A DNA stretch of 64,000 nt from Paraescarpia echinospica (Eukaryota > Annelida > Polychaeta > Sabellida > Siboglinidae): NCBI GenBank assembly GCA_020002185.1, contig CM034544.1, positions 37,415,862 to 37,479,861 of the forward strand. The letters run 5' to 3'. Below are positions 1,129 through 44,751 of the stretch, in pieces. Under the pieces are notes generated by a model, which was not told the DNA's origin, did no database searches, and was given only the letters and a program-made list of their open reading frames with translations. Numbering within the stretch: the first letter of the stretch is position 1; every line of letters starts with the position of its first letter. The translations under genes were made by a program, and so were the position numbers.

Positions 1129-3435
1129 CCCCACACGCCTGTGCAGATATACCCCACATGCTGTGAAGACATACCCCACACGCTGTGCACACATACCCCA
1201 CACGCTGTGCAGACATACCCCACACGCTGTGCAGACATACCCCACACGCTGTGCAGACATACCCCACACGCTGTGCAGACATACCCCACACGCTGTGCAG
1301 ATATATACCCCACACGCTGTGCAGACATACCCCACACGCTGTGCAGACATACCCCACACGCTGTGCAGACATACCCCACACGCTGTGCAGACATACCCCA
1401 CACGCTGTGCAGACATACCCCACACGCTGTGCAGACATACCCCACACGCTGTGCAGACATACCCCACACGCTGTGCAGACATACCCCACACGCTGTGCAG
1501 ACATACCCCACACGTGGTGCAGACATACCCCACACGCTGTGCAGACATACCCCACACGCTGTGCAGACATACCCCACACACTGTGAAGACATACCCCACA
1601 CGCCTGTGCAGACATACCCCACACGCTGTGAAGACATACCCCACAAGCCTGTGCAGACATACCCCACACGCCTGTGCAGACATACCCCACACGCTGTGCA
1701 GATATACCCCACACGCTGTGCAGACATACCCCACACGCTGTGAAGACATATCCCACACGCTGCGCAGACATACCCCACACACTGTGCAGACATACCCAAC
1801 ACGCCTGTGCAGACATACCCCACACGCTGTGAAGACATACCCCACACGCTGTGAAGACATACCCCACACACTGTGCAGACATACCCCACACGCTGTGCAG
1901 ACATACCCCACACGCTGTGCAGACATACCCCACATGCTGTGCAGACATACCCCACACACTGTGAAGACATACCCCACACTCTGTGCAGACATACCCCACA
2001 TGCTGTGAAGACATTACCCCACACCTGTGCAGACATACCCCACACTGTGCAGACATACCCCACCACACTGCAGACATACCCCACATCAGCCAAAGACATA
2101 CCCCACACGCCTGTGCAGACATACCCCACACGCCAGAAGACATACCCCACAAGCCTGTGCAGACATACCCCACACGCCTGTGCAGACATGGCCCCCACAC
2201 GCCTGTGCAGACATACCCCTACTACTGTGCAGACACGCTACCCCACACGCCTGTGCAGACATACCCCACACGCCAGCAGACATACCTACCATCGCCAGGC
2301 AGACATACCCCACAATCACTTCGTGAAGACATACCACGCTGTGAAGATACCCCACACGCCTGTGCAGATATTACCCCACACGCCAGAAGACATGCTACCC
2401 CACACGCCTGTGCAGACATACACCTACCACGCTGTGAAGACATACCCCACACGCTGTGAAGATATTACCCCACACGCCTGTGCAGACATACCCCACACGC
2501 TGTGAAGACATACCCCACACGCTGTGAAGACATACCCCACACGCTGTGCAGACATACCCCACACGCTGTGCAGACATACCCCACACGCTGTGAAGACATA
2601 CCCCACACGCTGTGCAGACATACCCCACACGCTGTGAATACATACCCCACACTCTGTGCAGACATACCCCACACTCTGTGCAGACATACCCCAAATGCTG
2701 TGAAGACATACCCCACACTCTGTGCAGACATACCCCACACGCTGTGCAGACATACCCCACACGCTGTGAAGACATACCCCACACGCCTGTGCAGACATAC
2801 CCCACACGCCTGTGCAGACATACCCCACACACTGTGCAGACATACCCCACATGCCTGTGCAGACATACCCCACACACTGTGCAGACATACCCCACACGCC
2901 TGTGCAGACATACCCCACACACTGTGCAGACATACCCCACACGCTGTGAAGACATACCCCACACACCTGTGCAAACATACCCCACACGCTGTGAAGACAT
3001 ACCCCACACGCCTGTGCAGACATACCCCACACGCTGTGCAGACATACCCCACACGCCTGTGCAGGTATACCCCACATGCTGTGCAGACATACCCCACACG
3101 CTCTGAAGACATATCCCACACGCTGTGCAGACATACCCCACACACTGTGCAGACATACCCCACACGCCTGTGCAGACATACCCCACACGCCTGTGCAGAC
3201 ATACCCCAAACGCCAGTGCAGACATACCCCACACGCTGTGCAGACATGCCCCACACGTCTGTGCAGACATACCCCATACGCTGTGCAGACATACCCCATA
3301 CGCTGTGCAGACATACCCCACACGCTGTGAAGACATACCCCATACGCTGTGCAGACATACCCCACACGCCTGTGCAGACATACCCCACACACTGTGCAGA
3401 CATACCCCACACGCTGTGCAGACATGCTCCATTTG
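1129..3435. repeat. 22-bp minisatellite array, left copy
   Basis: About 105 tandem copies of a 22-bp unit, GCAGACATACCCCACACGCTG plus T, with 23-bp variants (ACGCCTGT for ACGCTGT) and GAAGAC for GCAGAC variants. The unit has no stop codon in any frame and 22 is not a multiple of 3, so all six frames stay open and long artificial reading frames appear. The same array in opposite orientation sits at 16596-17840, which makes the array part of the inverted-repeat structure. Confidence 0.95.
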
Positions 3436-3690
3436 TCGGTGGTTATATGTAACACAATGTAATACATTTAGATATGTCAATTGCTTAGTGCGGGTACTTC
3501 TGGAAACGTCGATATTAGATACTACATGATGATTATTTATAATTACCGCACATAAATCATTCGCTGCTTCAATGTCCATTAAATTGTATCATGTCGGCCT
3601 CACATTTTGCCACGATGCATATCATTAGCCTATAGTTTAAACAACACTGCAACTGATCTAGGCTAATAGCTGGCGTGATTGCTTCAGGTG
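3436..3690. other. No gene seen
   Basis: Short AT-rich stretch between the minisatellite and the helix-turn-helix fragment. I see no coding region or repeat. Confidence 0.5.
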
Positions 3691-3691
3691 C

Positions 3692-3945
3692 ACAATGGTG
3701 AGACATTATAGGAAGAAAACCAACAAACAGTCATGGAGTGATGAAAACATGCGACTGGCTATTGAGCTGTGGAACAAGGGGGCGTTGGATATCGCCAGAT
3801 TGCGAAACAATTCAATGTGCCCTGGTCAACGCTGCGATGTCGCATAAAGAATAATAATTATAAACCATCTTCTCTGAGGAACAAGAAGACGAATTGTGTT
3901 TGTACATCCTCCGTATGGAAGAGGTCTTGTTTGGACTGAGCAGAG
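3692..3945 (+). pseudogene. psq-type helix-turn-helix transposase fragment
   Basis: Starts with an ATG and a short basic leader followed by the pattern W-S-D-E-x-M-x-x-A-I, typical of the psq/CENP-B-like N-terminal DNA-binding domain of pogo/Tigger/Jerky-like transposases. Around position 3780 the frame shifts, and the next frame continues with a recognition-helix-like stretch (QIAKQFNVPWSTLRCR). No DDE catalytic domain follows, so this is only the N-terminal piece of a dead transposase. It is related to, but distinct from, the fuller copy at 25198-27385. Confidence 0.55.
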
Positions 3946-4082
3946 ATGACATACGGCATGTTGCTTACCAGATGAAAACACAGGAAATAAATTCGTTATG
4001 CATAATGTTTATATTTGTTGTTTTTACTGCATAAGTGATGTTTCAGAAACCAATTAATTTTGTATCTACATGGGGTCAAATA

Positions 4083-4120
4083 AATGTTATGTTATGTTAT
4101 GTTACGTTATGTTATGCTAT
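4083..4120. repeat. TATGT pentanucleotide microsatellite
   Basis: Short run of TATGT-type pentamers with a few interruptions, immediately before the inverted host-gene copy. Confidence 0.7.
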
Positions 4121-4740
4121 TCCGCTAACTATGCAGTTGTTTGTGTTGGACTCCCCATGATAATTTACGTGTAGGGAAGGACATCACTGCAAATTCAACA
4201 CACCATTTTGTCTAGTGGTGTTGCACCACCAGCACAACGTACAACAAATAACCAATGTTGAAGTTGAACGTGTATTAATATCAAACACTGTAGAATGCAG
4301 TACATACCTTTACATGTCTTTGAAGTACTGTCATAAATTAAGGGTGACTTGCAAGTGTCATTGTCAGTCAGCCGCACATTCTACAACAAGCAAATAAACA
4401 TCAGTTGAGCAGTCATAACAAGCAACAGTAGATGACACAGCCATAGAGACAGGGAGAGGGTGAGAGAGTGGCACAGAGAAAGGAGACAAGGAGAGAGGGA
4501 GAGCAAGGCAGAAAGAGAGGAAGAGCGATGGAGAGAGAGGGAGAGCGAGGGAGAGAGAGGAAGAGGGAGGCAGAGGGAGGGAGAGAGACAGAGGGGGAGA
4601 GAGAGAGGAGGGGAGAGAGGGGAGAGAGAGAGAGGGATGGAGAATGATGGAGAGGAAAAGAGACAGACATACATAACATATAACATATAGCAGACATTTG
4701 ATTACCATCTTTCTGGTAGATGTCTAATGATAATTCCACC
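4100..4740 (-). pseudogene. Inverted copy of a cysteine-rich gene segment with GA-rich tract
   Basis: Reverse complement of about 53820-54440, including the purine-rich tract (4445-4660, GA repeats). It contains a pseudo-exon at 4308-4380 on the minus strand, bounded by an acceptor (TTGTAG) and a good donor (GTATGT). The exon is 73 bp, whereas its counterpart at 54156-54257 is 102 bp, so about 29 bp are deleted and the frame is broken. The corresponding donor in the other copy has mutated from GT to CT, so neither copy is fully intact. The encoded pattern is a small repeat of spaced cysteines of EGF/furin-like type. Confidence 0.6.
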
Positions 4741-4879
4741 TCGATCCGAGAAGTCTCGCGGGAATAACCCTATCCTGTCGCCCCTTATACTAACATATCA
4801 TAACAATTTATGACACATTATTGTCAACTTCTGTGTAGTGGACTGAATGGAACAGTGTACACCAAGCCTTAGAGAGACG

Positions 4880-5300
4880 ATGATCTCGCTGACTGCAGAT
4901 CCTTCACTCAGTTCACATGCAGTGCATTGAGCAAGACACGTGGTTCTGCAACTGTCAACAATGCAAGGCATCAACTCTTCTCCAATGGCAGTCATCAACG
5001 ACCCAGGCCGCCCTCTTCGAGCATATCAAGAGGTATTTGTTCCAAGCCTCTTTTATGTGGAAGCAGTCAACAGCTTGCCACCAGGCAATCGCTGTGTTTG
5101 GTCAATAGGGATTTTAGCAGGATGAGCGCAGCAAGCAACGGCATCCTTTCTGGACCACTCTCGCCGACGCAAGTATGGCTTGTGCCCTACTCCTACATGG
5201 TGGATGCACGAAACGTGCAAGGGCAATTGAAAGAACTGCAGGGCAGGCCTTCATTGCATGTCATTGTGCAAGAGCGAGAGTGGCTGCCTAAACAATGATG
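4880..5300 (+). pseudogene. Fragment of a transposon-associated CXC-type ORF
   Basis: One frame reads TQAALFEHIKR followed by a Q-A-x-x-x-W-x-Q pattern. A second frame further on reads WTTLADASMACALLLH followed by spaced Cys. Both resemble a family of transposon-associated invertebrate proteins that carry an 'AALxxHxKRAxYQAGxxW' stretch and then a cysteine-rich tesmin/CXC-like region. The frames do not join, so this is a decayed fragment. The repeat array at 49151-50365 seems to come from another part of the same protein family. Recognition is from memory of the pattern only. Confidence 0.4.
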
Positions 5301-5820
5301 GCAAAGATGCTAACCATTGAACCTCTACTAATGGATAGAAGGATGGTCAGATGATGGATGCTATTGTTTAGGAACATTCATTGTAGGTTTCGTTTCGACC
5401 CATTGAAGCAATGATTCTGAACTATTTTAAAATTAAATCTTCACAATAACGGTTGAAACAAAATATCATTGAATTTGTGTATCTAACTGACATATCATTG
5501 CTATTTCTAGAATAATATAATTACTATGAACTGGTTTACATTCCCAGTTGTACATAATCTGATGCTTCTGTAATAAATGACGACATTGATCTTCACCTTG
5601 ACCTTCATTATATCAACTCCATTGCATCTTTCAGTATCGGTTTTGAACATAATAATAAAAAATATACCCCTGTTCACACAGTAAGATCAATTGAATCATC
5701 AACAGATACATAGATTTTGGTGCATTTATGAGCAAATTTGACCTTTACCTTGACTGAAGTGACATTTAACCCATATATTTAAGAAAACACAGGAAATGAA
5801 TTTGTTATTCTCGAAAACGC
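5301..5820. other. No gene seen
   Basis: AT-rich intergenic sequence; nothing recognised. Confidence 0.5.
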
Positions 5821-7490
5821 CTAAAAGTGGTCTCATTTATGGTGCTACTACTTTTGGTTCTCGAGTTATTGCACAACCTTTCTCCGGACAGTGGCCATCT
5901 TGGTTTTGTCCCATATGACCGTCACATAGGGGGCTCAGCTTGGCCTCTACGGAAAAATTAAATGTCACAGCCATATATAATGCTGGTCCAAAAATGGTGT
6001 TTGTGGAAAGATGTGAACAATTAAAACGATTAAGCCCCCTGACTATAGGCCTGGTACAATCTATCAAGGCGGGTAGGATGCACGAATTTGGGATGGGCTC
6101 AGCTCAAAATGAACTGCATTTTAAAAGGGGTAGGATCCAAGTGTTGCACATTTGGGGTTGGGTCCATCCTCAGTGTTCAACATTACGACAAAATTAATTT
6201 TGTGTACAAAATGTGCATTAAATTTACGTGCAAATGATTGGAGAATAGAACAAATTCCTGTGAACAAGAATGTTCAAGACAACTAGGAGGCATTGATCTG
6301 TGCTGTGAAGATGTCAAAAACAATTTCTTCAGGCCAATAAGAAATAAACATTCCCGTAATTTAACAGCATGATATTAGGTCGGGCGGCAAAGATTTGTTT
6401 TCCCTCATGCTGCTTGGATTGATACAGCTAAGCTAGTCAATTATTATATCTGTTAACTCTCCCGTGAAATCTGGGAGTCGTCCGGAATTTAGGTAAATCT
6501 CCCGGATTTTCTCTCGAAATCTCCAACAGCACCCCCCATCTACGAGATAGCGCGACACCATGGGAGATGTGCCAATACGTGCTGAACCACTAAATTTCGA
6601 GAAAAAAAATCTCCAATAACACCCACCCCAATCTTCTTATGTCAAGATCCGAGATATATGGGAAGCATGCTGAACCCCTGAGGAATCTCCCGGATTTCAA
6701 CAAAAAAGTTGGCAGGTAAAAATTATATATTTTCCTTGTCATGTTGTAAGAACTTCTAGGGTCAGGTATGTTTAAAGTGTCAGACGAGTATCCAAAAATA
6801 AAAATAAATTATTCTGGTATGACTTAACCATGGGAGTAGTTATCTTTAGACACATCTGCCCGATTCACAGTGTGAACGTCGTTGTCTATTAATTGCTCTC
6901 ACACAGAATGCAATATTTACACTTGTCTTTGACGCGAATAATACAGATGGCGTATTGCACACAACAATGTAATCCACTTACTTGAACATGTAGTGCCATC
7001 AAACATATAACCATACTAGCATGTCGTACATTGATCAGCAATGGTGCAGGAATCACAGATGTCAGCAAAAGCTGAAAGCAGAAGAACTTGGCATTACACC
7101 CAGAAGTGTATGTGGTTCACAGAAACACTGCGACGTCTCAGCATCCCTCGGTTCCACTGCGACATACATCAAGAAGGCTGCATGTTTATCTGCAAGGCAA
7201 CCGGATAACATTTACATGTGTCCGATGTACAGCTCGTCTTTGTTCTGCAATGTAGAATATATTAACTGTGTGATATATATTTCAATATGCATTTGCAGCA
7301 CAGTATTTTAATTTTGTGAATGCATTGTACTATTCCGCTAACAATGCAGTTTTATTGTGTTGGACACCGCATGATAATTTACGTGTATGGAAGGACATCA
7401 CTGCAAACTCAACACACCATTTTGTCTAGTGGTGATGCACCACCAGCACAACGTACAACAAATAACCAAAGTTGATGTTGAACGTGAGTA
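5820..7490 (-). pseudogene. Inverted copy of 54290-55950 with a dead cysteine-rich exon
   Basis: This block is a diverged reverse complement of about 54290-55950. On the minus strand a 90-bp pseudo-exon lies at 6982-7071, flanked by a polypyrimidine acceptor (TTTCAG) and a perfect donor (GTAAGT). Its counterpart at 54709-54798 is open, but here a TAG interrupts the frame. The exon encodes C-x3-C-x2-C-x5-C-x2-C spacing. The rest is intron-like sequence. The block lies inside the large inverted repeat, next to Polinton element 1, so it is either a captured host segment or a host duplication that the element inserted beside. Confidence 0.6.
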
Positions 7491-7539
7491 GTAAAGGAGG
7501 TCCCTTACCGCGCAGGGTGTCGCGCCGCGGAGCAAGAGC

Positions 7540-7645
7540 AAAGTACCCGGATGTAGGTCAAGGTAAAGCACCCGGATGTAGGTCAAATGTCAAGTACCCG
7601 GATGTAGGTCAAGGTCAAGTACCCGGATGTAGGTCAAGGTCACGT
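7540..7645. repeat. Four tandem 25-bp repeats
   Basis: Four copies of a unit built on ACCCGGATGTAGGTCAAGGT, slightly diverged, directly before the next repeat cluster. Their position upstream of the element 1 gene block suggests a regulatory or subterminal role, but this is only positional inference. Confidence 0.8.
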
Positions 7646-8092
7646 GGCGCCCCCTACCGGAATTTTTCGGAACTAGAATAGCACGCCACCTAGCGGATTT
7701 TCCGGAACTAAAATATTTCCCCGCCAAAACTGAAAAAGCGCCCCCTGGCGGATAGTTGGTGAACTAATTATTTCCCGCCAAAACCAAAATAGCTCCCCTG
7801 GCGGATAGTTGGTGAACTAAATAGCGCCCCCTGGCGGATAGTTGGTGAACAAAAATATTTCCCGCCAAGAAATAATTTCCCCCCATAACTAAAACAGCTC
7901 CCCCTACCGGAATTTTTCGGAACTAAAATAGCGCCACCTGTCGGATAGTTGGTGAACAAAATTATTTCCCGCCAAAACCAAAATAGCTCCCCCTGGCGGA
8001 TAGTTGGTAAACTAAATTATTTCCCGCCAAAAAAAAAATTCCCGCCAAACTAAAACAGCGCCCCCTATCGGAATTTTTCGGTACTAGTTATA
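7646..8092. repeat. Diverged 45-60 bp tandem repeats
   Basis: Around nine imperfect units containing CCCCTGGCGGATAGTTGG and TTTCCCGCCAAAA, alternating with ACCGGAATTTTTCGGAACTA. Spacing is irregular. No protein is encoded. They sit about 400 bp upstream of the first TATA box of element 1. Confidence 0.75.
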
Positions 8093-8470
8093 CAAGTGGT
8101 GTCATATTGTGCACAAGTTGTAAACTAAATGTTCTAGTACTGCAAATATTCGTGTCTATTGCACGCTTGCGTGCAATAGAGCCCCCTGACGGGTACATCA
8201 CGAACTACAAACATCATCCCCTAGTGGACAAGTGAGCGAACCACATATGAGTACTGCAAATATTCGTGTCTCTTGTTTTTTCTCGTCCATAAACACCTGG
8301 TGGATATATAATCATCAACTGAAAGCACCCCTGTTAGATAAGTGGTGAACTAAATAACTACTCAGCAGTCCGCGCTTGTGTACATTCTACTCAGCAGTCC
8401 GTGCTTTTGAATTTTCTACAATCCGTGATCTTTCGGCACGCCCACGTGACTTTTCGGCACATTCTCTAAC

Positions 8471-8480
8471 TATATAAGCG
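8471..8480 (+). promoter_or_regulatory. TATA box of element 1 RPA-like gene
   Basis: TATATAAGCG lies 72 bp before the ATG at 8543. About 28-30 bp downstream is TCATTC, an initiator-like start. The identical ten bases TATATAAGCG occur in front of the first + strand gene of element 2 (29884-29893), which supports a real promoter shared by the two elements. Confidence 0.6.
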
Positions 8481-8542
8481 CAGTGTTTTGCCAATCGGAC
8501 CGTCATTCGTATCACGACGACAGCACTGTTAACATCATCATC

Positions 8543-9109
8543 ATGTTGAAGACACCCTACTACCGACCTCGCAATGCGGCAGACTCGAGCGACGAGGACG
8601 AGCCGACGAGCCGGCCCATCATGCCGGTGATCAACCGTCCTTCCGTGCCGTCGGAACCAGACGTCGTGGACGTCGTGGACATCTCGGCTCTAGAAGCAAC
8701 GGTAAGCGCCGACGCCGTTATCAAGATCAGAGGGCTCCTCATCGATAGAGTACGCCAGCACACTCCCTTGTACATCGGGTGCAGGTACTGCAAGAAGCGT
8801 ATGATTACCGACGATAGGGGACATTTGCAATGCGAACGACACGGTTACGTTGCTTCTGACGTGCATTTCGTGGTGCGCATGTGCTTTGTCGAGACAGCGA
8901 CGGGTCGATCTATATGGCTGACTTTATTCGACCAGTGTATGGCTCCTCTCCTTGACGTGAATGCCGAGACGTTTGCTGGTATGGACGAAACGATGCAGAC
9001 TTACAAACTGAACTCGTTGACGGGAACTCGTGTGTCTCTCACCATAAAGAAAACTCGACGAGATACTTACACAAACGTCAACGTCACTCGCGTGGAGGTG
9101 ATACACTAG
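8543..9109 (+). CDS. RPA-like ssDNA-binding protein (OB fold with zinc ribbon), element 1
   Basis: A 188-residue protein; I choose the ATG at 8543 because the open frame upstream has no ATG. Residues 1-53 are acidic and probably disordered (SSDEDE). The rest matches the C-terminal DNA-binding domain of replication protein A (Rep_fac-A_C family): IGCRYCKKR and LQCERHG supply zinc ligands (CxxC...CxxH), then a beta-rich segment and IWLTLFDQCM. The expected role is binding single-stranded DNA during PolB-driven replication of the element in the nucleus. A homologue is at 43860-44630 in element 2. The codons GTA AGC at 8702-8707 double as a consensus splice donor (see the alternative product). 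The gene is intact. The family assignment rests on motif pattern, not on a search. Confidence 0.65.
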   Translation: MLKTPYYRPRNAADSSDEDEPTSRPIMPVINRPSVPSEPDVVDVVDISALEATVSADAVIKIRGLLIDRVRQHTPLYIGCRYCKKRMITDDRGHLQCERHGYVASDVHFVVRMCFVETATGRSIWLTLFDQCMAPLLDVNAETFAGMDETMQTYKLNSLTGTRVSLTIKKTRRDTYTNVNVTRVEVIH

Positions 9110-9692
9110 GCTCCGTATCCTGTTTCAGCCTCTCTCTGCTGTCATCCCTGCCGATGTGACAACTTCCGCCGACACGACCGGTGTGATAACTTCCGCTCCT
9201 GACGATGTGGCAATTTCTACTCACGCAAGCAATGTGATAACTTCCGCTCCTGACGACGTGACAATTTCTACTCACGCAACCAATGTGACAACTGCCGCTC
9301 CTGTCGCCACTGGTCCGAACTTTACGCTTGAGTTTCCGGCAATGGAAATGAAGAAGACGATTGCACGTCACATAGCATGTGCCATCGTTGAACTCTCGAG
9401 ACGACAGTGTCTCGCTTGCGAGATAGACGATCCTAGTCAATTTCATCACGATTGTATGTTACCTGATGACATTCTAATTTATATGCACTTTGACGAGGCT
9501 GTGGAGGCCATTAATTCGACTGCAGTGATGAAAGACTGGTTGTGTGTTTTGTTAGACGCGGGTTTGAAGCTATCCGACCTGACGTCCGATCACTTGTGTG
9601 CTATCGGGAGTTGGTTGCAAGAACCGTTTTCAGAGGAGTGGCGAAACAAATTAAAGCAAATTGTTCTGGCAGTAATGGAGGATGATCTGTAA
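8543..9692 (+). CDS. Predicted spliced product sharing the RPA-like N-terminus, element 1
   Basis: Predicted exons are 8543-8701 and 9129-9692. The donor ACG|GTAAGC at 8702 is at codon phase 0. The acceptor is CCTGTTTCAG ending at 9128, 19 bases after the RPA stop, and the second exon begins in phase 0. The second exon has no ATG near its start (its first usable start would be GTG), so it needs an upstream exon. The joined product would be about 240 residues: the acidic 53-residue leader, three 17-residue Ser/Thr-rich repeats (TSAPDDV core), then a conserved segment with CLACEIDDPSQFHHDC, a likely metal-binding motif. The same arrangement exists in element 2. A polyadenylation signal AATAAA is at 9779. 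Function unknown. Confidence 0.55.
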
Positions 9693-9778
9693 ATCTGTCT
9701 TGTGGTTTTATGAGACCTTCAGTGACATTAATTCGACTGCAGAGAATGGAGTGCGACCTGTAAATACGTTTGTGTTGT

Positions 9779-9784
9779 AATAAA
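9779..9784 (+). terminator. Polyadenylation signal
   Basis: AATAAA, 87 bases after the stop codon of the exon ending at 9692. Confidence 0.5.
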
Positions 9785-9866
9785 ATGTGCAAACCTTATC
9801 TTGCGTCTTTTTTCGTGTCTTACACTTCACAAGTAAAGGTACTCGTCTAAGTCCCGATTAACAAAT

Positions 9867-10152
9867 CACTCACTCACTCACTCACTCACTCACTCACTCA
9901 TCCTTCATGTCTGTTCACTCACTCACTCATCCTTCTTGTCTGTTCACTCACTCACTCACTCACTCACTCACTCACTCACTCATCCTTCGTGTCTGTTCAC
10001 TCACTCACTCACTCACTCACTCACTCACTCACCCTGCGTATCTGTTCACTCACTCACTCACTCACTCACTCACTCACTCACTCACTCACCCTGCGTATCT
10101 GTTCACTCACTCACTCACTCATTCAATCACACAAGCCCTCACTCACTCACGC
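9867..10152. repeat. CACT/CTCA tetranucleotide microsatellite
   Basis: Long run of ACTC-type tetramers interrupted four times by short spacers such as CCTTCGTGTCTGTT and CCTGCGTATCTGTT. The open frames through it are low-complexity artefacts. Confidence 0.95.
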
Positions 10153-10284
10153 CCTCCCTTCGTCGCTTTTCTAACATTTTATCTTTTCAACATGTTACCG
10201 TGGTAACATTTTCGTATTTTAGTGCGTTCAATTCATCTCGCCATTCATTTCATTGCTTGCACTTGAACCACAAACACCTACATC

Positions 10285-11268
10285 ATGAGCTTATCTACTG
10301 TTCTACTGGCTGCCAACAAGTCCACACCATCACCGTTCCAGTGCCCAAATTGCAAGAGACATTTCTCACGTCGGGAGAACTTGAAACGGCACATTGCCTC
10401 CATTCACGGTGGACGATTGACAAACACCACGTCACTGGATTCACTTGTCTCGGGGCCCACTATGACACATGTGCCTACGGTTCCTTCAATAAGCTCGAAA
10501 TTCCCGGATCCATCTCAGGTGACAATGGAGTACACAAAGAAGATGGCCCTGGTCGATCCCCGTATTTTGGAAAACATTCAACCGCAACGTCCTTCGACTG
10601 CTAACCCTATCGAAAGGGTCTTGCAACGACTCGACAATGAAATGCTAGACATACTAGAACGAAACGATATACACGAGAGGGAAAAAGTTATGTTGTATAA
10701 CCAGGTGTTGAATCGGTACAACGATCTTTCCGACAAACGTATCCAAGAACCCGTGCGTGTGGTCATCGAAAAAATTCCCAGTGAAGAGAAAAACAAAGTA
10801 CAACCTGCTAACGAAAATGAAGTCGTCGAAAAGGAGAGCATCGAAAACGAAATCATCGACAGCGTTCCAAAAACTATGAAGCAGAAAGTACGAAGACTAC
10901 TCGATAAAATGAAAGGGGCCGTAAGTTGGAATGATCGTGGCGAGATGATGTACAGAAACAAGGCGGTTCCCGGAAGTAATATCGTGGACCTTGTGAATGA
11001 CGTGTTGAGAAAACGGAAGTCGTTTGAACCGGTGGGATGGGAAACCTTTGCTCGTGGTCTAAAGGATGTCAACACGCCAATGGATTTAGTGGGTAATCTC
11101 GATCGTTGGCTTTACATGCAGACAGCGTCAGTGGACGGCGACATATCAAAGGAAACCAGCATTCCGTTTGACAGTGGTCGTCGTCGGAATCGTAGACGAC
11201 CTGCATCGTCGCGGCGCGCAGCTCATTCGGCGACACCTTTGCAAATCACACGTTGGGAACCTTATTAG
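10285..11268 (+). CDS. Zinc-finger/VDPR conserved Polinton protein, element 1
   Basis: 327 residues, intact, starting at the ATG at 10285. Residues 13-36 form one C2H2 finger (FQCPNCKRHF...HIASIH). After a linker the protein has ALVDPRILE, then a helical segment with LDNEMLDILERNDIHEREK and YNQVLNRYN, a variable acidic linker, and a C-terminal conserved block with WNDRGEMMYRNK, SNIVDLVNDV and PVGWETF, ending in a basic tail. The same layout without the finger is at 31508-32281 in element 2. I recognise this as a protein repeatedly seen beside Polinton capsid genes in invertebrates, but I know no assigned function. The basic tail and finger point to nucleic acid binding, possibly in the virion core or packaging. 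Confidence 0.6.
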   Translation: MSLSTVLLAANKSTPSPFQCPNCKRHFSRRENLKRHIASIHGGRLTNTTSLDSLVSGPTMTHVPTVPSISSKFPDPSQVTMEYTKKMALVDPRILENIQPQRPSTANPIERVLQRLDNEMLDILERNDIHEREKVMLYNQVLNRYNDLSDKRIQEPVRVVIEKIPSEEKNKVQPANENEVVEKESIENEIIDSVPKTMKQKVRRLLDKMKGAVSWNDRGEMMYRNKAVPGSNIVDLVNDVLRKRKSFEPVGWETFARGLKDVNTPMDLVGNLDRWLYMQTASVDGDISKETSIPFDSGRRRNRRRPASSRRAAHSATPLQITRWEPY

Positions 11269-11328
11269 CATTACCGATTTGAAATCTACAGGAACAGTGT
11301 GCAAGATATATTATATGTGAAATATTCA

Positions 11329-11403
11329 AATAAAAAAAAATCGTATCTTGGGTGTCTGAATAAAGCATTTCACAAACGCACATATGGTGTCGACTTTTTT
11401 ATT
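11329..11403. terminator. Convergent polyadenylation signals
   Basis: AATAAA on the + strand at 11329-11334 (for the VDPR gene) and TTTATT at 11398-11403, i.e. AATAAA on the - strand (for the protease end of the capsid cluster). This is the meeting point of the two transcription units of element 1. Confidence 0.55.
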
Positions 11404-11453
11404 GCTTAATTAAGGTAATACAAGAATGTGCATGCCAACATTACATGCAAACG

Positions 11454-11906
11454 TTACTTGGCACTCTTAACAAAATCGAAAACACGACAGTCATTGTTCA
11501 CTAAATCGTTCCCGAAAGTGTTCACAAACGTCTTCGTAGGTACGCCTCGACTTCGGTGCAGCAAGTACACGACACAGTATTGTCCACACACGTTAGACAG
11601 CGGGCTCTGAAGCGTTCTCTTGTTGAAAGTCCAAGTCACGCAGTTGCTCTGTAGAAAATCCACGAATTCGTCGTGTTGAGGTGGCAAACCGTAGGAGTCG
11701 AAGTAATCTCCACGTCCGTCTTTTGCGATAAACATGCAGATCCAATGTTGACCCGGTTCATTGCTCGAATGAGTGTTGCACACGAAAGCTGCCGGATAGG
11801 TCGTCATAGGAGTAGTGGGTAACCCGTCTTTAGGTAGTACGCCTCGAACAACGGTTCTAGTGTAAGCATCCGCCGCAAGGAGTCTTTCTATCTGTGCCGT
11901 ATCCAT
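11454..11906 (-). CDS. Adenain-like maturation cysteine protease, element 1
   Basis: 150 residues. The catalytic signature of the adenovirus-type (C5, Ulp1-fold) protease is visible in order: His in EPGQHW, Asp in YFDSYG, and Gln/Cys in NVCGQYCVVYLL. Polinton proteases of this kind are expected to cleave capsid precursor proteins during particle maturation. Its ATG overlaps the stop codon of the major capsid gene by one base (TGATG), so it is the last gene of a tightly packed cluster. The homologue in element 2 (37505-37962) has a stop codon; this copy is intact. Confidence 0.9.
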   Translation of the reverse strand: MDTAQIERLLAADAYTRTVVRGVLPKDGLPTTPMTTYPAAFVCNTHSSNEPGQHWICMFIAKDGRGDYFDSYGLPPQHDEFVDFLQSNCVTWTFNKRTLQSPLSNVCGQYCVVYLLHRSRGVPTKTFVNTFGNDLVNNDCRVFDFVKSAK

Positions 11907-13210
11907 CAGTAATCGTAGACGACGTTTCTGTTGCGGTCAATCTCCAAAACCGTCTCGAATTCTCCGTAGACGACGACGTTGATCGTTTGGTCGAGAGGCT
12001 GATTAAAGTGCATCTCGACTCGTAGGTTGCCTTTATGTACCAAATTGAAATGGGGACCGTCACAACAATCTGGTGTGATGTCAAACGCAAACAGGGTATA
12101 TCCTTTGCCAAACTCGTCACGACTGATGTTGTTTCCCTCGTCTTGAAACATCTTTCCCGTTCCAGCAAATAGATTACTGTAACTTCTCACGTAGGAACCA
12201 TCGTTGAAATTAGGTTGGAGTGGTTTCGCAGGAACTTGTTGCCCGTCGACGTACAATGCAAGAAAGTTCAAGTTGTTGTGTTTTACGTGGAACGGATTCT
12301 TGGCGAATGTTCCGTTGTATGCGTCGTTGTCTATACAACACAAGACTATTCTCTTGGGTAAGACACCCAAATAAACGTTTTCGTGAGTGTGCGACATGGC
12401 ACCTCGGGGTATGGAAAATACCTTGCAATCGACTCTTCGCAACGGATACTTGGCCGTTCCCTTTTGTAGCGCTTTGATGTGACCCATCTGTACGGCAGGA
12501 TTCAGTTTAGCTTTTCGCGCAAACAAAATTGCTTCGACTATGCGTACCTTGTAATCGGCATTGTCACCACCAGCACCCATGAGTGCAAAAGCATCCTTGC
12601 TCTGTACTAGTCGAATTTTCACGTCGACACCGTTCAATAGATAGCGGTCTTGAAAGAAGAGGTCGACGTGTAGACGGCCCATCATATCGACGATTCGACT
12701 ACCGGAAATATAGGTCTTTCTTTTTTGCAGCCCCGTGTTTGCGTCGTCGGTGGCATCCATGTGTCCAGCCGTATCTTTGTACCACAAGGCACTAGTCAGT
12801 TGACTCTTCTTTGCTTCTGCTCCGTGACTCAGTAACGTTTCTATGTACGCTCGATAAGGATAGGTATTCGTTGAAGGTGTGACGAGGGTACCGTTCAAAG
12901 ACACGTCGACTTGACTAAACAGAGAATGCATCCAGTTGTTTACTGGTCCAACAGCTGCAGCTTGAGCGATATCGTCCCCGTTTCCTTTGACTACACGTGC
13001 TCGCACCAACAGGTAAGTATTGGCCACGTCCAGGTAATCGTCTCCCGATCCGGGCAATAAGAATTCGATAGGACCACCCGAACCTATCGAGGCGACAGGT
13101 CGATGCTCGATCCACTGTGCGTGTTCGATACTCGTTTGTGTCGTCGGTAAACTAAATAGGTCCAATTCGCTTTTGACTCCCTCACACGACAACTGGTGGA
13201 CAAAAGCCAT
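11906..13210 (-). CDS. Polinton major capsid protein (double jelly-roll), element 1
   Basis: 434 residues, uninterrupted. The N-terminus MAFVHQLSCEGVKSELDLF, the block LPGSGDDYLDVANTYL and the later stretch RIVLCCIDNDAYNGTFAKNP match the family often listed in invertebrate genomes as 'F54H12.2-like', which is the Polinton/adintovirus major capsid protein with a predicted double jelly-roll fold. It should assemble into the icosahedral shell with the minor capsid protein. It lies two bases after the small basic protein and overlaps the protease by one base. Compared with element 2 (36200-37503, broken) the whole length is conserved. Confidence 0.92.
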   Translation of the reverse strand: MAFVHQLSCEGVKSELDLFSLPTTQTSIEHAQWIEHRPVASIGSGGPIEFLLPGSGDDYLDVANTYLLVRARVVKGNGDDIAQAAAVGPVNNWMHSLFSQVDVSLNGTLVTPSTNTYPYRAYIETLLSHGAEAKKSQLTSALWYKDTAGHMDATDDANTGLQKRKTYISGSRIVDMMGRLHVDLFFQDRYLLNGVDVKIRLVQSKDAFALMGAGGDNADYKVRIVEAILFARKAKLNPAVQMGHIKALQKGTAKYPLRRVDCKVFSIPRGAMSHTHENVYLGVLPKRIVLCCIDNDAYNGTFAKNPFHVKHNNLNFLALYVDGQQVPAKPLQPNFNDGSYVRSYSNLFAGTGKMFQDEGNNISRDEFGKGYTLFAFDITPDCCDGPHFNLVHKGNLRVEMHFNQPLDQTINVVVYGEFETVLEIDRNRNVVYDY

Positions 13211-13212
13211 GT

Positions 13213-13623
13213 CTAGTCGAATATGTCGTCTCGACGCGTCTTCTGTCGTCTGCGTCTCTTGGCGACACTGGCTAGGGTTCTCGTCGGCTTGCGTTTTATA
13301 GGAGCGTTGCGTATGCCAGGAGGGCCACTGCTTCCCAACACTCTACTGATCATGTCCTTTCCGGTTTCTTTCGCACGCCTCTTTGCAGATTCTTTAATGC
13401 TCTGTCCAGACAACACGTCACCGGCCACACCCAAACCTGTCTTTAACGCTCCTTTTCCCAAAGCGAGTGCGCCTCTTTTTATGAGTGGCATAGCACTTCG
13501 AATGAGACCACCGAACAAACTACCTAGACCGTGACCTCGTTGCACCCTTGCACCAACAAACACGGGCAACCCGTTACCGACTTGTCTGACGTAATAGTCT
13601 TCGTAAGAACGATTACGACTCAT
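13213..13623 (-). CDS. Small basic virion-like protein, element 1
   Basis: About 136 residues from the ATG at 13623 (an earlier in-frame start at 13647 would overlap the minor capsid gene). It begins MSRNRSYEDYYVRQ, has a Gly-rich FVGARVQRGHGLGSLFGG segment, an amphipathic stretch with PLIKRGALALGKGALKTG, and a strongly basic tail (KRRRRQKTRR). This gene regularly sits next to Polinton capsid genes. The composition recalls adenovirus core/membrane-lytic proteins (pVI or pX), so a DNA-binding or membrane-active virion role is plausible, but that is inference. It starts two bases after the minor capsid stop. Confidence 0.6.
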   Translation of the reverse strand: MSRNRSYEDYYVRQVGNGLPVFVGARVQRGHGLGSLFGGLIRSAMPLIKRGALALGKGALKTGLGVAGDVLSGQSIKESAKRRAKETGKDMISRVLGSSGPPGIRNAPIKRKPTRTLASVAKRRRRQKTRRDDIFD

Positions 13624-13625
13624 GA

Positions 13626-14492
13626 TTAAAAAAATGATGGTTTGCACCGTCGAAAGTGAAGTGTTGCCGTCACTCTACCTTGCTCGAATGGTACGCGCCG
13701 TCCCGTGTCGTCTCTTATATCGATCTCGATGGTCGTAAATTCTTTGTGCAAGACGGGAACGTATTGTACATTATCAAAACTTTTTGACACCACGTCTCCG
13801 TGTTTCCCTTCTATCGGTACAACCCTCAACAGAGGGACGACGGTATCCCCGACCACACGTGATTCAACAACGTCGGTGTACACGCACAGGGTGTCGACTC
13901 CCCGATTCATGTCCACCGTATACCGACCCTCGTACTCGTAGGTATACGTGACGGGAGCGGTGCTGATGACGACGGCCCTGCCGACCGCCAAGATGGGTGG
14001 GCTCGCGATCACACTCGAATCGAAGCCTAGTACGATCTTCAGATGACTCTGAGGGGGTATGTTAAATTTAACACCCGGCGATAGGTGCAACTTCATCCGG
14101 TTAGAGATGGGGCTGAACCCCAGGCGGGCCTTGACTTTATCGGTGCACAGTTTCCCCAGCGCCTCGTTGATTTTGTGCATCAACTCGTAAGCGCTGTTGT
14201 AAAAGCCGTAAGGAATGGTGCCTTGCCGGTGAATCCGAGTACTACCGCCGTCACCGGTGGTGTAAATCCCTCGCTCCCCCGTCGCACAACTCAAGTCGAA
14301 GTACGCATCCTCCTTTCTCACGTTGTTCCAAGTGTGCGGGTATTGAATCTCCACCAGTCCGCACTCCCACTGACCGACTAAACTGATGCGTTGTGGCAAA
14401 GCCGTGACATAGTGGGTCAACGTGTTGTCGGGATTTACCTCCATAGATGCGTTGCTGGGCAATGTCAGGTAAAAATCAGACGACATGGTCAC
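13626..14492 (-). CDS. Minor capsid (penton-like) protein, copy A, element 1
   Basis: 288 residues, intact. It begins MTMSSDFYLTLPSNASM and ends TATLHFRRCKPSFF. The family is the Polinton minor capsid protein, predicted single jelly-roll, forming the vertices. The middle of the protein (about residues 60-190, with GERGIYT and GTIPYGFYNSAYEL) resembles the element 2 copy at 34493-35371. The first 55 and last 110 residues are almost identical to copy B (14617-15390), while the middle is quite different. See the finding on mosaic duplication. Confidence 0.85.
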   Translation of the reverse strand: MTMSSDFYLTLPSNASMEVNPDNTLTHYVTALPQRISLVGQWECGLVEIQYPHTWNNVRKEDAYFDLSCATGERGIYTTGDGGSTRIHRQGTIPYGFYNSAYELMHKINEALGKLCTDKVKARLGFSPISNRMKLHLSPGVKFNIPPQSHLKIVLGFDSSVIASPPILAVGRAVVISTAPVTYTYEYEGRYTVDMNRGVDTLCVYTDVVESRVVGDTVVPLLRVVPIEGKHGDVVSKSFDNVQYVPVLHKEFTTIEIDIRDDTGRRVPFEQGRVTATLHFRRCKPSFF

Positions 14493-14605
14493 CGCGTTTC
14501 ATAGACGGATTAGGTAACTGCTCAACAACTTGCCCCAACAAACACGGGCAATCCGTCACCGACTTGTCTGACGTAGTAGTCTTCGTAAGAACGATTACAA
14601 CTCAT
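14493..14605 (-). pseudogene. Junction of the tandem duplication: truncated small basic gene and membrane-gene tail
   Basis: From the ATG at 14605 a 27-codon frame repeats the start of the small basic protein gene (MSCNRSYEDYYVRQ) and then stops at 14522. The remaining bases to 14493 resemble the last codons of the membrane protein gene that precedes copy B. These scraps mark the ends of the duplicated unit: tail of the membrane gene, whole minor capsid gene, head of the small basic gene. Confidence 0.75.
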
Positions 14606-14616
14606 GTTTCAAAAAA

Positions 14617-15390
14617 TTATGGTTTGCGTCGTCGAAAGTGAAGTGTTGCCGTCACTCTACCTCGCTCGAATGGTACGCGACATCCCGTGTCGTCTCTTAT
14701 ATCGATCTCGATGGTCGTAAATTCTTTGTGCAAGACGGGAACGTATTGTACATTATCGAAACTTTTTGACACCACGTCTCCATGTTTTCCTTCTATCGGT
14801 ACAACCCTCAACAGAGGGACGACGGTATCCCCGACCACACGTGGTTCCACAACGTCGGTGTAGACGTATAGGGAGTAAAACCCCTGCGCCATGTCTACCA
14901 CAGATTCGGCTTTTTTAACGTAATAATAATCTGGTCCTTCTTCTTCGGGTGTGGTGTAAACAGCCTGGCTTAAACCTAGCAAATGCTGAAGTTTCAACGA
15001 GTACACTGAGAATGAGATGTTTTCTATCATGTGTATAGTCACTTTTTGTGTGGTGTCACTGTAGCTTAGTTTTATTTCCTTTTCTTTTATCGGTGACTTT
15101 ATGATTCTGTTGATTGCACGAATGAGCGCTTGGGGACTATCGTAGTGGCCTGCCTCGATATTCACCACATAAGTCGTACCATCGGCCTTCACGGCAAAAT
15201 AAGTTTCCTCTTCTCTCACGTTGTACCAACTGTGCGGGTATTGAATCTCCACCAGTCCGCACTCCCACTGACCGACTAAACTGATGCGTTGAGGCAAAGC
15301 CGTGACATAGTGGGTCAACGTGTTGTCGGGATTTAACTCCATAGACGCGTTGCTGGGCAATGTCAGGTAAAAATCAGACGACATGTTCAC
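14617..15390 (-). CDS. Minor capsid (penton-like) protein, copy B, element 1
   Basis: 257 residues, intact. Starts MNMSSDFYLTLPSNASM, ends ATLHFRRRKP. Ends are nearly the same as copy A in both protein and DNA, but residues about 60-160 are different (YFAVKADGTTYVVNIEAGHY, then an Asn/Lys-rich stretch and LLGLSQAVYTTPEEEG). The start overlaps the end of the membrane protein gene by 17 bases in another frame. Expected role is vertex capsid protein with a single jelly-roll; the divergent centre could be the exposed surface, which is inference. Confidence 0.85.
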   Translation of the reverse strand: MNMSSDFYLTLPSNASMELNPDNTLTHYVTALPQRISLVGQWECGLVEIQYPHSWYNVREEETYFAVKADGTTYVVNIEAGHYDSPQALIRAINRIIKSPIKEKEIKLSYSDTTQKVTIHMIENISFSVYSLKLQHLLGLSQAVYTTPEEEGPDYYYVKKAESVVDMAQGFYSLYVYTDVVEPRVVGDTVVPLLRVVPIEGKHGDVVSKSFDNVQYVPVLHKEFTTIEIDIRDDTGCRVPFERGRVTATLHFRRRKP

Positions 15391-42351: not shown

Positions 42352-42777
42352 ACAGCGACGGTGACGGTGGTGGTGGTGGTAAGTACACCCTAGCGTGTGG
42401 AATGTGGTGGTAACTAGCGGTCATTTTTATCTCTACGGTGGGGAATGTGTTTGCGCTAGCGGTAATTTTTCTAACTAACGGTGGGGAATGTGTTTGCGCC
42501 AGCAGTAATTTTTCTAAATATTGTGGGTAACTCGGAAACGGAAAGTACATTTTCAACGTTTTATTCGGTACTCTTACAACATTCAAACACAGCAGCGTCG
42601 TTGAAGCCTTTGTTTCAATAGCAAGCAAATATTAGCAAAATGTTCTCTATTCTACTAGTGTTCGTTCGTTCATTCCAGTCCGTTCCGGCGTTGCACGTAC
42701 GTGTGCACGGCCGACTCGAGTTGCACGCGATTTATATAATCGCGCCAATTTGTTCCCAACAACCAGTTCGACACAAA
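42347..42777. other. Intergenic between PolB and the RPA-like locus
   Basis: GGTGG-rich short repeats near 42360-42380, two copies of GGTGGGGAATGTGTTTGCGC (42439 and 42480), and TTTATT near 42560 that could be the minus-strand polyadenylation signal for the upstream locus. No gene. Confidence 0.45.
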
Positions 42778-44630
42778 CTACACCAAATACAACTCTCCTG
42801 CACGGCCCGTTTGCGGCTGCTGATCACCGGAAGAAGTCGACACCGTAGTTTCGTGTAGAATATGCACTAGTCTCGTGAAACAGGGGATGAGCCATCGACG
42901 CAGGAACGTTTCGATGACGCCGTTGAAATAGCGCGTCACAATACAGCCCGGCTTATCGAAACGTTGCATGTATACACGATTTGGCCGCCCCGCGCGATAG
43001 CCGGGCATGTGTACGTATGGACAGCCTTCATTCGGTTCACATACCCCGCATTGATCACGCGCCTTCTCCAGAATCATTTCGCCGAGAGTCTCGGCGACGA
43101 GATCCATCGCCAGCAGTTCGTAACGCCCGACCAACTGACTCCGGCTCGGCACGACAAGTTGCCGTTGGCACGTCCCCAGCTCCTCCGATACGCTCCAGTA
43201 CGGCGAGCACGTCGGTCCCATCGTCCCCAGGCTTTCGTTATACGTCGGTGGAGCGGGACGCATTCGGTTCGAACCGCCCAGTGCCACCTCGATGATCGCC
43301 TCCAATACGTGTGCGTCACGCACTCCACTACCCTACAGCACAAAGCAGTTCTACTCTTTACGAATCACCGTCAGGAACGCGTGTAGGAAGTCGCTCATAC
43401 ACTCACGCCTGGTGTGCTGCATCAGAGCGTCCTACAAACACATTATTATTATTATGATTAGTCCGCCTCCGCCTCCCTCTTGTTCTCTTCCTCATCCCTC
43501 TTTATCGACCCCTGCACACCGCGTTCCAACAACGTTCTTACGAACGAAGCAACCTCGTCGTACTGAGCGAGAATCCTTTCGTTGTTTGCAAGCATTTTTT
43601 CCAGTACGCAGCGCACTTCCTAAAGCATATAAAAGCACAACTGTTAGTACATCAAACTACTACAAAATAGGCTTGCTTCGTAGGCCAACCAAAACGCTCT
43701 TATATATTGCTCGGCCGACTCGACTAATAGTTGAAAGCTCTCCTCGCTTAGTTCCCGACCACGACGGTCTCTCATTCGTTGTCGTTCGTTCGCGTGCGTC
43801 AATAAATCTACAAGTAGCGGCCAATTTTCCTCCTACAAACAACACAAGACAACAACACATTAGTCATCGTTGTCGTCGACGATGACGTATCTCTTTAGTG
43901 TGCGGACTGTATACGAGGCCTCCCCGTTCCAACTCGTATTCCGCACACTAATCTCCACTTTAGTACCGGCTAACTCGAGCACGGTATCGCGGAGATCCTC
44001 CTCGTTCAATTCCGTCAAGTACTCAGCCGTGTACTCGACGAGATTAGACATTTGGCTATCAAACAACGTAAGCCAAAGCTCGTATTCCTCCTCCTCGCCG
44101 TCCTTCACCATCACACGCAACGCGAAGAAATATTTCGGAACAAACACTTCACCGTGCGTTCGACATATCAGGGTCCCGGCTTTGCCTGTCTGCAATTTCC
44201 GGCGACAACGGGAACATCCCAAATAGGTGGTGCCGGCCTCACCTTTGTACGAGACGGCGTCGATCATAACGGGCGACAGGATTTTATACACACCGTTGAC
44301 AGCACACTTCAGATGTCTCAGACTCACCACTGTGGCGCGTGTCGACGCCGACGATTCACGCTCCATAGAGCCGCTCCGCGACAGGACTGGGGGCTGCTCA
44401 GCCGTCTCGTCGGGCTCCAAGGACGCCTCTTCAGCGCTTCGCTTTCGCCCGACAGTCAACGGGGCCGCAATGAGCGCGACGGGGCGCTTAACGGGTGGTG
44501 ACGCCCCCGTTGACAAGGCTGCAATCAGCGGCGAAGGTTGACCGCTGTTGGCCGCCGCCGCCTTCATCGACTGCTTGCGCGATGCCTTCGTCTTTTTTGG
44601 TTGTTGTTGTTGTTGACTTTCATCCGCCAT
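42778..44630 (-). CDS. Predicted multi-exon alternative product of the RPA-like locus, element 2
   Basis: Predicted exons (minus): 44630-44328, 43832-43677, 43619-43542, 43431-43369, 43332-42778, all phase 0, about 384 residues. The first donor GTG|GTGAGT is a perfect consensus. Its acceptor (TTGTTTGTAG) comes just after the RPA stop. The second intron has a GC donor (GCAAGC), a TACTAAC branch sequence and CTTTAG; the third has GTAAGA and TTTGTAG; the fourth is only 36 nt and the least certain. The last exon contains LEKARDQCGVCEPNEGCPYVH, aligned in spacing and surroundings with the metal-binding motif of the element 1 product (CLACEIDDPSQFHHDC). The last exon has no ATG at its start. Function unknown. 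Confidence 0.45.
43860..44630 (-). CDS. RPA-like ssDNA-binding protein, element 2
   Basis: 256 residues from ATG 44630 (MADESQQQQQ), intact. About 100 residues of low-complexity, Lys/Ala/Ser-rich sequence precede a domain homologous to element 1 (8543-9109): YLGCSRCRRK and LICRTHG as zinc ligands, YELWLTLFDSQM, then LAGTKVEIS near the end. This matches the OB fold with zinc ribbon of the RPA C-terminal DNA-binding domain. Likely role: coating single strands during element replication. The codons GTG AGT at 44327-44322 (Val-Ser) form a donor at the same place as GTA AGC in element 1. Confidence 0.65.
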   Translation of the reverse strand: MADESQQQQQPKKTKASRKQSMKAAAANSGQPSPLIAALSTGASPPVKRPVALIAAPLTVGRKRSAEEASLEPDETAEQPPVLSRSGSMERESSASTRATVVSLRHLKCAVNGVYKILSPVMIDAVSYKGEAGTTYLGCSRCRRKLQTGKAGTLICRTHGEVFVPKYFFALRVMVKDGEEEEYELWLTLFDSQMSNLVEYTAEYLTELNEEDLRDTVLELAGTKVEISVRNTSWNGEASYTVRTLKRYVIVDDNDD

Positions 44631-44751
44631 GTTGTCTGTTGCGGAAGAACGTCTGCTGCTTGCTGCTCTGCTGTTGTACAAAGAATACACGTTAGAACTT
44701 TTACGCCATACAATATAACTTTTTCTCAACCGTTTTATACTTTTCCAAATA

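What the first reader, a model, noticed from the sequence alone, without database searches (positions are those of the whole stretch)
8543..9692. Conserved alternative-splicing switch in the RPA-like gene of both Polintons
In element 1, a donor ACG|GTAAGC (8702) sits at phase 0 where the RPA domain begins, and an acceptor (TTTCAG, 9128) 19 bases after the RPA stop opens a 188-codon frame with no ATG, also phase 0. In element 2 (44630-42778) a perfect donor GTG|GTGAGT lies at the homologous Val-Ser codons, and an acceptor 27 bases after the RPA stop opens a phase-0 frame. The proteins have diverged greatly, yet both signals and phases persist. The prediction is that unspliced RNA makes the ssDNA-binding protein, while spliced RNA makes a second protein with the same N-terminus and a C-x2-C/H-x-C type motif. 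This is a compact two-product locus I have not seen described.
Basis: partly seen in the sequence, partly recalled or inferred. Interest (0 to 1): 0.88.

Follow-up and report, generated by a model that had tools for sequence, protein, structure and literature searches.

The report
Splicing array in Polinton RPA gene
In two families of virus-like transposons in an animal genome, one short leader exon appears to be spliced to alternative endings of a DNA-binding protein gene, so that one promoter would make two proteins in one family and about five in the other; comparison of many genomic copies supports this, but no RNA has been seen.

Summary
Element 1: RPA-like gene 8543-9109, phase-0 donor at 8702, acceptor 9127-9128, second frame 9129-9692; that frame has in-frame ATGs (first 9342). 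The two elements' donor codons align about 8 residues apart, so they are not shown to be homologous. Element 2 is richer than reported: four acceptors follow its RPA gene (exons start 43832, 43619, 43431, 43332). Each opens a phase-0 frame that closes 18-27 nt before the next acceptor, and three stops lie inside branch-point-like CTAAY motifs. In 50 element-2 copies (window plus 49) the donor GT is kept in 50 and the AGs in 48, 50, 49 and 50; a competing stronger donor in only 24. The segments show pN/pS 0.30-0.59 in the frame that begins at the AG (pooled 0.36 before their first ATG; segment 3 weakest). The stop-to-AG spacer drifts through all three frames while the reading frame stays anchored at the AG. 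I conclude: one donor, alternative acceptors, a shared N-terminus; two products in element 1, up to five in element 2. Element 1 alone is weaker: its linker looks neutral and an internal ATG is conserved. No transcript was examined.

The parts
8471..8477 (+). TATA-like word upstream of the element-1 RPA gene (another at 8305)
   Evidence: pattern scan
8543..8701 (+). element 1 shared first exon (53 codons, acidic Ser-rich N-terminus)
   Evidence: pN/pS 0.34 over 49 rows
8702..8707 (+). element 1 donor GTAAGC, phase 0
   Evidence: kept in 50 of 50 first loci and 5 of 5 further ones
8702..9109 (+). element 1 RPA70-C-like domain to its stop, part of the intron if spliced
   Evidence: Pfam PF08646 E 9.4e-8; pN/pS 0.32
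9110..9128 (+). element 1 spacer and acceptor (TGTTTCAG)
   Evidence: AG kept in 48 of 50 loci; diversity 0.010 at 9121-9128 against 0.083 at 9110-9120
9129..9692 (+). element 1 second frame: low-complexity linker 9129-9341, C-x2-C-x9-H-x-C domain 9342-9689, stop
   Evidence: open >=160 codons in 40 of 49 rows; pairwise pN/pS of the domain 0.50, of the linker 0.99
9779..9784 (+). AATAAA poly(A) signal after the second frame
44328..44630 (-). element 2 shared first exon (101 codons)
   Evidence: pN/pS 0.28
44322..44327 (-). element 2 donor GTGAGT, phase 0
   Evidence: GT kept in 50 of 50 copies, GTGAGT in 49
43860..44327 (-). element 2 RPA70-C-like domain to its stop
   Evidence: Pfam PF08646 E 1.8e-7; pN/pS 0.32
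43833..43863 (-). branch-point-like CTAAT holding the RPA stop, tract and acceptor A1
   Evidence: AG kept 48 of 50 (listing); spacer lengths scattered over all three frames
43644..43832 (-). segment 2 (62 codons plus stop)
   Evidence: open >=45 codons in 48 of 50; pN/pS 0.45
43620..43647 (-). CTAAC holding the segment-2 stop, and acceptor A2
   Evidence: AG kept 50 of 50
43458..43619 (-). segment 3 (53 codons plus stop)
   Evidence: open >=40 codons in 46 of 50; pN/pS 0.59, the weakest
43432..43461 (-). CTAAT holding the segment-3 stop, and acceptor A3
   Evidence: AG kept 49 of 50
43351..43431 (-). segment 4 (26 codons plus stop)
   Evidence: open >=20 codons in 50 of 50; pN/pS 0.30
43333..43353 (-). 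segment-4 stop, spacer and acceptor A4
   Evidence: 21 nt and AG in 50 of 50
42778..43332 (-). segment 5 (184 codons plus stop here) with C-x2-C motif
   Evidence: open >=140 codons in 38 of 50; pN/pS 0.33, and 0.39 before its first ATG, which is itself kept in 20 of 38; 215-224 codons in 30 of the 34 rows aligned
42560..42565 (-). AATAAA, the only A[AT]TAAA found on this strand between 44900 and 42000

Best explanation
Each locus is one transcription unit whose short first exon codes for a common N-terminal tail and ends in a phase-0 donor. If the RNA is left unspliced, the ribosome reads on into an RPA70-C-like domain and makes an ssDNA-binding-type protein. If the donor is joined to a downstream acceptor, the RPA domain is removed and the same N-terminus is fused to another C-terminus. 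Element 1 has one such acceptor (two products). Element 2 has four in tandem, each starting a terminal frame that ends in a stop just before the next acceptor (up to five products). Three of those stops lie inside the next acceptor's branch-point-like CTAAY. Shown: signals, their retention in copies, coding selection in the frames that start at the element-2 AGs, and anchoring of the frame at AG A1. Inferred: that the sites are used by the spliceosome, that choice among them is regulated, ssDNA binding (from the Pfam match), and zinc binding or a regulatory role of the C-x2-C proteins.
For: Element 2, window plus 49 genomic copies, all 50 different in exon 1 + RPA, pairwise difference median 5.8%, maximum 10.8%. 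Donor GT 50/50; it is the only GT that is both kept in >=45 copies and has a median donor score >=3. A higher-scoring donor at 44242 is kept in 24/50. AGs 48, 50, 49, 50 of 50. By eye in the listing the stop-holding CTAAY is kept in 49, 48 and 48 of 50 at A1, A2, A3. pN/pS in the frame starting at each AG: 0.45, 0.59, 0.30, 0.33; codons before the first ATG 0.52, 0.38, 0.08, 0.39, pooled 0.36; exon 1 0.28, RPA 0.32. The RPA-stop-to-A1 spacer leaves remainders 0/1/2 in 19/16/15 copies, yet 48 of 50 open 61-65 codons in phase 0 from that site, which speaks against read-through or a fixed frameshift. Third positions vary most in every segment and also at the ends of segments 2 and 4 (last 12 codons of segment 2: 0.048/0.003/0.092; last 8 of segment 4: 0.015/0.015/0.131), while spacers, indels apart, are quiet (0.015-0.030). 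In the window copy the own frame scores best of six by codon use in 4/4 segments. Poly(A) signals follow the last frame of each unit and TATA-like words precede the first. Element 1: donor kept 50/50 loci plus 5/5, AG 48/50 plus 4/5 (the one loss, L105, read by eye from its translation); acceptor octamer eightfold less variable than the adjoining spacer.
Against: No RNA evidence. Element 1: the linker between acceptor and first ATG shows no amino-acid constraint (pN/pS 0.99; 0.94 in its own frame against 0.71 and 0.66 in the other two); its codons hardly ever mutate to stop (0.065% per mutation), so its openness proves little; the ATG at 9348 is kept in 39 of 40 rows. The element-1 domain has pairwise pN/pS 0.50, but counting distinct changes gives 324 nonsynonymous to 139 synonymous, close to the neutral 2.57 to 1, and its indels are not enriched for multiples of three (17 against 18). 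The element-1 acceptor scores only average and no yTnAy was found 12-55 nt upstream. Element 2: segment 3 is weak (0.59; distinct changes 143 to 53); its last 12 codons give 0.135/0.118/0.214. No pN/pS in shifted frames was run for element 2, and exon 1 of the window copy is not the best of six frames by codon use. A3 and A4 score low and A4 lacks a stop-embedded branch point. TATA-like words also lie at 8305, 44288, 43706 and 42738, and an ATTAAA at 9650 inside element 1's second frame. Segment 5 is open for fewer than 140 codons in 12 of 50 copies. Copies are related, so counts are not independent. Splice matrices and pN/pS are simple approximations.
Confidence: 0.77

Rival explanations
1. 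The second protein is a separate gene that starts at its own ATG (9348 in element 1) from an internal promoter or by re-initiation, and the splice signals are incidental.
For: ATG at 9348 kept in 39 of 40 rows, linker unconstrained; P0021, a 102-aa relative, begins at the same Met.
Against: No TATA-like word between the RPA start and the domain in element 1. In element 2 the codons before the first ATG are constrained (0.36 pooled) and the segment-5 ATG is kept in only 20 of 38 copies. The AG octamer in element 1 is conserved next to variable spacer. Residues just before the Met resemble each other in P0013 and element 1, by eye.
Confidence: 0.14
2. The element-2 segments are consecutive exons of one long spliced message, not alternative endings.
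For: Segments follow one another, each in phase 0; a GT at 43368 in segment 4 is kept in 49 of 50 with a modest median donor score of 1.9, and weaker kept GTs lie at 43519 and 43406.
Against: No GT in segments 2-4 is kept in >=45 copies with a median donor score of 3 or more; third-position excess continues to the stop codons of segments 2 and 4; stop-to-acceptor spacers of about 18-37 nt are too short to be introns by themselves (minimum intron size recalled).
Confidence: 0.06
3. Stop-codon read-through or programmed frameshifting joins the RPA gene to the following frame.
For: In the window copy RPA and segments 2 and 3 share one frame (intron 495 nt; coordinates).
Against: Across copies the spacer length falls in all three frames (19/16/15) while the frame stays anchored at the AG.
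Confidence: 0.01
4. Chance resemblance to splice sites in relics of decaying elements.
For: GT and AG are common; the window copy of element 2 has a polymerase-like and a capsid-type gene in several frames; 9 of 50 element-2 copies have an RPA frame under 230 codons.
Against: Retention in copies, codon-level constraint, Markov P = 1e-4 for the composite sites.
Confidence: 0.02

Closest known systems
Polinton/Maverick elements and adintoviruses (animal Polinton-like viruses)
   Same: Long terminal inverted repeats, integrase (element 2), protease-like and capsid-type genes shared between the two elements
   Different: I found no account of an RPA-C gene or of alternative splicing in them in the listings (open-licence PMC papers only) and in passages of three papers
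Polyomavirus T antigens (recalled)
   Same: Shared N-terminus; reading on into the intron gives one protein, splicing gives another
   Different: Here the intron encodes an RPA-type domain and, in element 2, four alternative acceptors follow
Parvovirus NS1/NS2, adenovirus early regions, HIV tandem 3' splice sites (recalled)
   Same: One donor served by several acceptors to pack proteins into a small genome
   Different: Each acceptor opens a short terminal frame, and stops overlap branch-point-like motifs
RPA70 C-terminal domain (Pfam PF08646; PDB 6i52, 4gnx)
   Same: Sequence match incl. the Cys pair and WLTLFD block
   Different: Single domain with a low-complexity N-terminal tail; partner subunits were not sought

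Membership tests
RPA70-C (PF08646) | profile match above curated cut-off | tested here: met
   32.4 and 31.5 bits against 28.5; profile of 17 sequences hits 6i52 (Replication factor A protein 1), E 1.1e-5
RPA70-C (PF08646) | single-stranded DNA binding | not testable with these tools
   needs protein
Polinton/Maverick | terminal inverted repeats | tested here: met
   element 1 arms 1-786/18182-18967 98% and 779-1108/17857-18186 99%; element 2 arms 29507-29757/46840-47090 96%
Polinton/Maverick | RVE integrase | tested here: met
   element 2 only: PF00665 E 1.7e-12 and a chromodomain; none in the ten element-1 frames scanned
Polinton/Maverick | protein-primed DNA polymerase B | tested here: inconclusive
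   element 2 38146-41590 reads by eye like pPolB in two frames, but Pfam gave no polymerase hit for either; no candidate in the element-1 frames scanned
Polinton/Maverick | adenovirus-type protease and jelly-roll capsid genes | tested here: inconclusive
   Peptidase_C5 19.0 bits, below cut-off 21.3; structural-type genes shared by the two elements at 41-68% identity over matches of 90 residues or more, named by position and recall, not by Pfam
alternatively spliced viral transcription unit | conserved donor and several acceptors with compatible phase | tested here: met
   element 2
alternatively spliced viral transcription unit | spliced RNAs observed | not testable with these tools
   no transcript data on hand

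The most novel reading that the evidence does not exclude
A Polinton family with at least 148 scored copies in one animal genome keeps a tandem array of four 3' splice sites behind one donor, three of them with the preceding frame's stop codon built into a branch-point-like motif, so that splice-site choice alone selects one of five proteins with a common N-terminus: an adenovirus-like splicing cascade carried by a transposon, with a replication-type protein as its unspliced default.
Probability: 0.62. Interest if true: 0.8.

Novelty: new variant of a known kind. Interest (0 to 1): 0.7.

Why it matters
Polintons sit close to the ancestry of adenoviruses and other DNA viruses (recalled; also the theme of PMC11071308, of which I saw passages). 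A selected alternative-splicing unit around an RPA-like gene would show that such elements regulate expression by splicing, would explain several otherwise orphan short frames, and warns that gene finders that require an ATG miss these proteins. It is directly testable with RNA from the host.

Tried and rejected
Relatives in IMG/VR and GTDB contigs: none confirmed. Protein relatives of element 2's RPA: none of 904 candidates at E <= 1. Relatives of the element-1 second frame: one of 174 candidates, P0021. Homology of the element-1 C-x2-C domain with segment 5: suggestive only (9/30 identical, E 0.008 for the single pair; hhalign E 0.02 but probability 2%; best BLASTP between copy sets E 0.06). 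AlphaFold models of both were too poor to search (mean pLDDT 40.7 and 50.6). The donor at 44242 was considered and rejected: kept in 24 of 50, and the frame of segment 2 that it would open has the lowest codon score of the six. Openness of the element-1 linker was rejected as evidence.

Full report
WHAT WAS CLAIMED AND WHAT IS THERE. Element 1 carries a gene 8543-9109 whose product matches the RPA70 C-terminal domain (Pfam PF08646, E 9.4e-8); element 2 carries a diverged relative 44630-43860 (E 1.8e-7); the two proteins are 30% identical over 175 aligned columns. The statement that the second frame of element 1 has no ATG is wrong: six in-frame ATGs, first at 9342. The two donor codons do not align: BLASTP and MAFFT put element 2's donor Val about 8 residues upstream of element 1's.

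ELEMENT 2 IS AN ARRAY. Downstream of the RPA stop there are four acceptors, with exons starting at 43832, 43619, 43431 and 43332. Each opens a frame in phase 0 with the single donor (62, 53, 26 and 184 codons), and the frames closing before them end 18-27 nt before the AG. The TAA stops of RPA, segment 2 and segment 3 lie inside CTAAY motifs at branch-point distance; segment 4's does not. Counting such motif + acceptor + >=25 open codons, the 1.1-kb stretch has 3 against 0.08 expected from a Markov null (P = 1e-4); of 392 tiles only three overlapping ones, all here, reach three. TATA-like words precede the units at 44739 and at 8471 and 8305; AATAAA follows them at 42565 and 9779. Others lie inside: TATA-like at 44288 and 43706, ATTAAA at 9650.

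TEST IN GENOMIC COPIES, ELEMENT 2. The genome search answered three times. With the element-2 RPA protein it gave 2692 first-look candidates, 148 scored matches. I took the 30 loci returned and 20 from the lower-scoring end of the table, 50 of 148; L051 is the window copy and was dropped in favour of the window row, leaving 50 rows, all different in exon 1 + RPA. Donor GT 50/50; AG 48, 50, 49, 50 of 50; the stronger-looking donor at 44242 24/50. pN/pS in the frame starting at the AG: segment 2 0.45, segment 3 0.59, segment 4 0.30, segment 5 0.33, against exon 1 0.28 and RPA 0.32; codons before the first ATG 0.52, 0.38, 0.08 and 0.39, pooled 0.36. Frames reached the length limit in 41 (RPA), 48, 46, 50 and 38 of 50; pN/pS used only those rows. 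Counting distinct changes (synonymous/nonsynonymous: RPA with exon 1 154/218, segments 31/56, 53/143, 18/26, 164/262), segment 3 looks close to neutral and the others do not, though I computed a neutral expectation only for element 1. The stop-to-A1 distance leaves remainders 0/1/2 in 19/16/15 copies, yet 48 of 50 open 61-65 codons in phase 0 from that site. So the frame is set at the AG and not by the upstream frame, as splicing predicts and read-through or frameshift does not. Third-position excess runs up to the stops of segments 2 and 4, less clearly of segment 3, and the best kept GT inside segments 2-4 has a median donor score of only 1.9, which favours alternative endings over a chain of exons. 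Third-base invariance of the donor codons alone is not remarkable: 9 of 18 Val and 15 of 21 Ser codons are invariant too.

TEST IN GENOMIC COPIES, ELEMENT 1. 3651 first-look candidates, 150 scored. 50 of 150 loci examined (30 returned, 20 from the lower-scoring end) and later 5 picked from a search with a Ridgeia-like protein. Donor GTAAGC 50/50 and 5/5; CAG acceptor 48/50 (L013 and L029 have other sequence there) and 4/5 (the L105 loss read by eye). The acceptor octamer varies eightfold less than the adjoining 11 nt (0.010 against 0.083; 48 rows, L001, L013, L029 dropped). Exon 1 and RPA pN/pS 0.34 and 0.32, shifted frames 0.99-1.56 (49 rows, window counted twice as REF and L001). The second frame is open >=160 codons in 40 of 49 rows; its linker is not constrained (0.99), its domain is by the pairwise measure (0.50) but hardly by distinct changes (324 to 139, neutral 2.57 to 1), and Met 9348 is kept in 39 of 40 rows. 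Indels: linker 27 multiples of three against 5 others, domain 17 against 18. Element 1 alone therefore leaves the separate-start reading alive; the element-2 result tips the balance.

BEYOND THE HOST. The protein search found 16 relatives of element 1's RPA gene at E <= 0.01, three named Ridgeia piscesae. Of the 13 that cover the donor codon none has Val-Ser or Val-Arg there, so this donor is not conserved at that distance. P0013, a predicted protein held by ENA, joins an RPA domain to a C-x2-C-x3-HPSQ domain like that of element 1's second frame, which suggests the same order of parts in another genome. P0021 begins at the Met equivalent to 9348.

MECHANISM AND LIMITS. Most likely the unspliced RNA makes the RPA-like protein and splicing from the one donor to alternative acceptors makes proteins with the same tail and other ends. 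What the other proteins do is inference; the C-x2-C domains suggest zinc binding. Nothing here shows RNA. Literature: listings, and passages of PMC11071296, PMC11071308 and PMC4028283, gave no account of alternative splicing or an RPA gene in Polintons; I read no paper whole, and the library holds open-licence papers only.

Noticed in passing
window 38146-41590 (-): Polymerase-B-like gene of element 2 lies in two frames, and its integrase region (32343-33518) and capsid-type gene (36200-37499) are also split; this copy looks decayed.
   Followed up: partly
window 1-18967: No polymerase or integrase was found in the ten element-1 frames scanned with Pfam, although its family has at least 150 scored copies; it may depend on other elements. 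A run of 1000 N (15596-16595) lies inside it, so sequence is missing.
   Followed up: no
window 13626-15390 (-): Element 1 holds two tandem copies (57% identical) of a gene for which element 2 shows one match (34460-35371).
   Followed up: no
window 9150-9320: A 51-nt repeat in the element-1 linker varies in number between copies; linker lengths of 54, 71 and 88 codons recur in steps of 17, and 63 also recurs.
   Followed up: partly
window 10285-11268 and 31508-32122: The C2H2 zinc-finger gene beside the RPA gene of element 1 has a 47% identical relative on the far side of element 2.
   Followed up: no
window 1128-3431 and 16596-17839: Long tandem repeats in the terminal regions of element 1, with offsets in steps of about 22 nt, mirrored at both ends.
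   Followed up: no
window 29923-30378: Open frame with a NADAR domain (E 9.5e-25) just inside the left repeat of element 2.
   Followed up: no
window 59099-61582: Satellite-like array with a period near 326 nt, about 95% identical.
   Followed up: no
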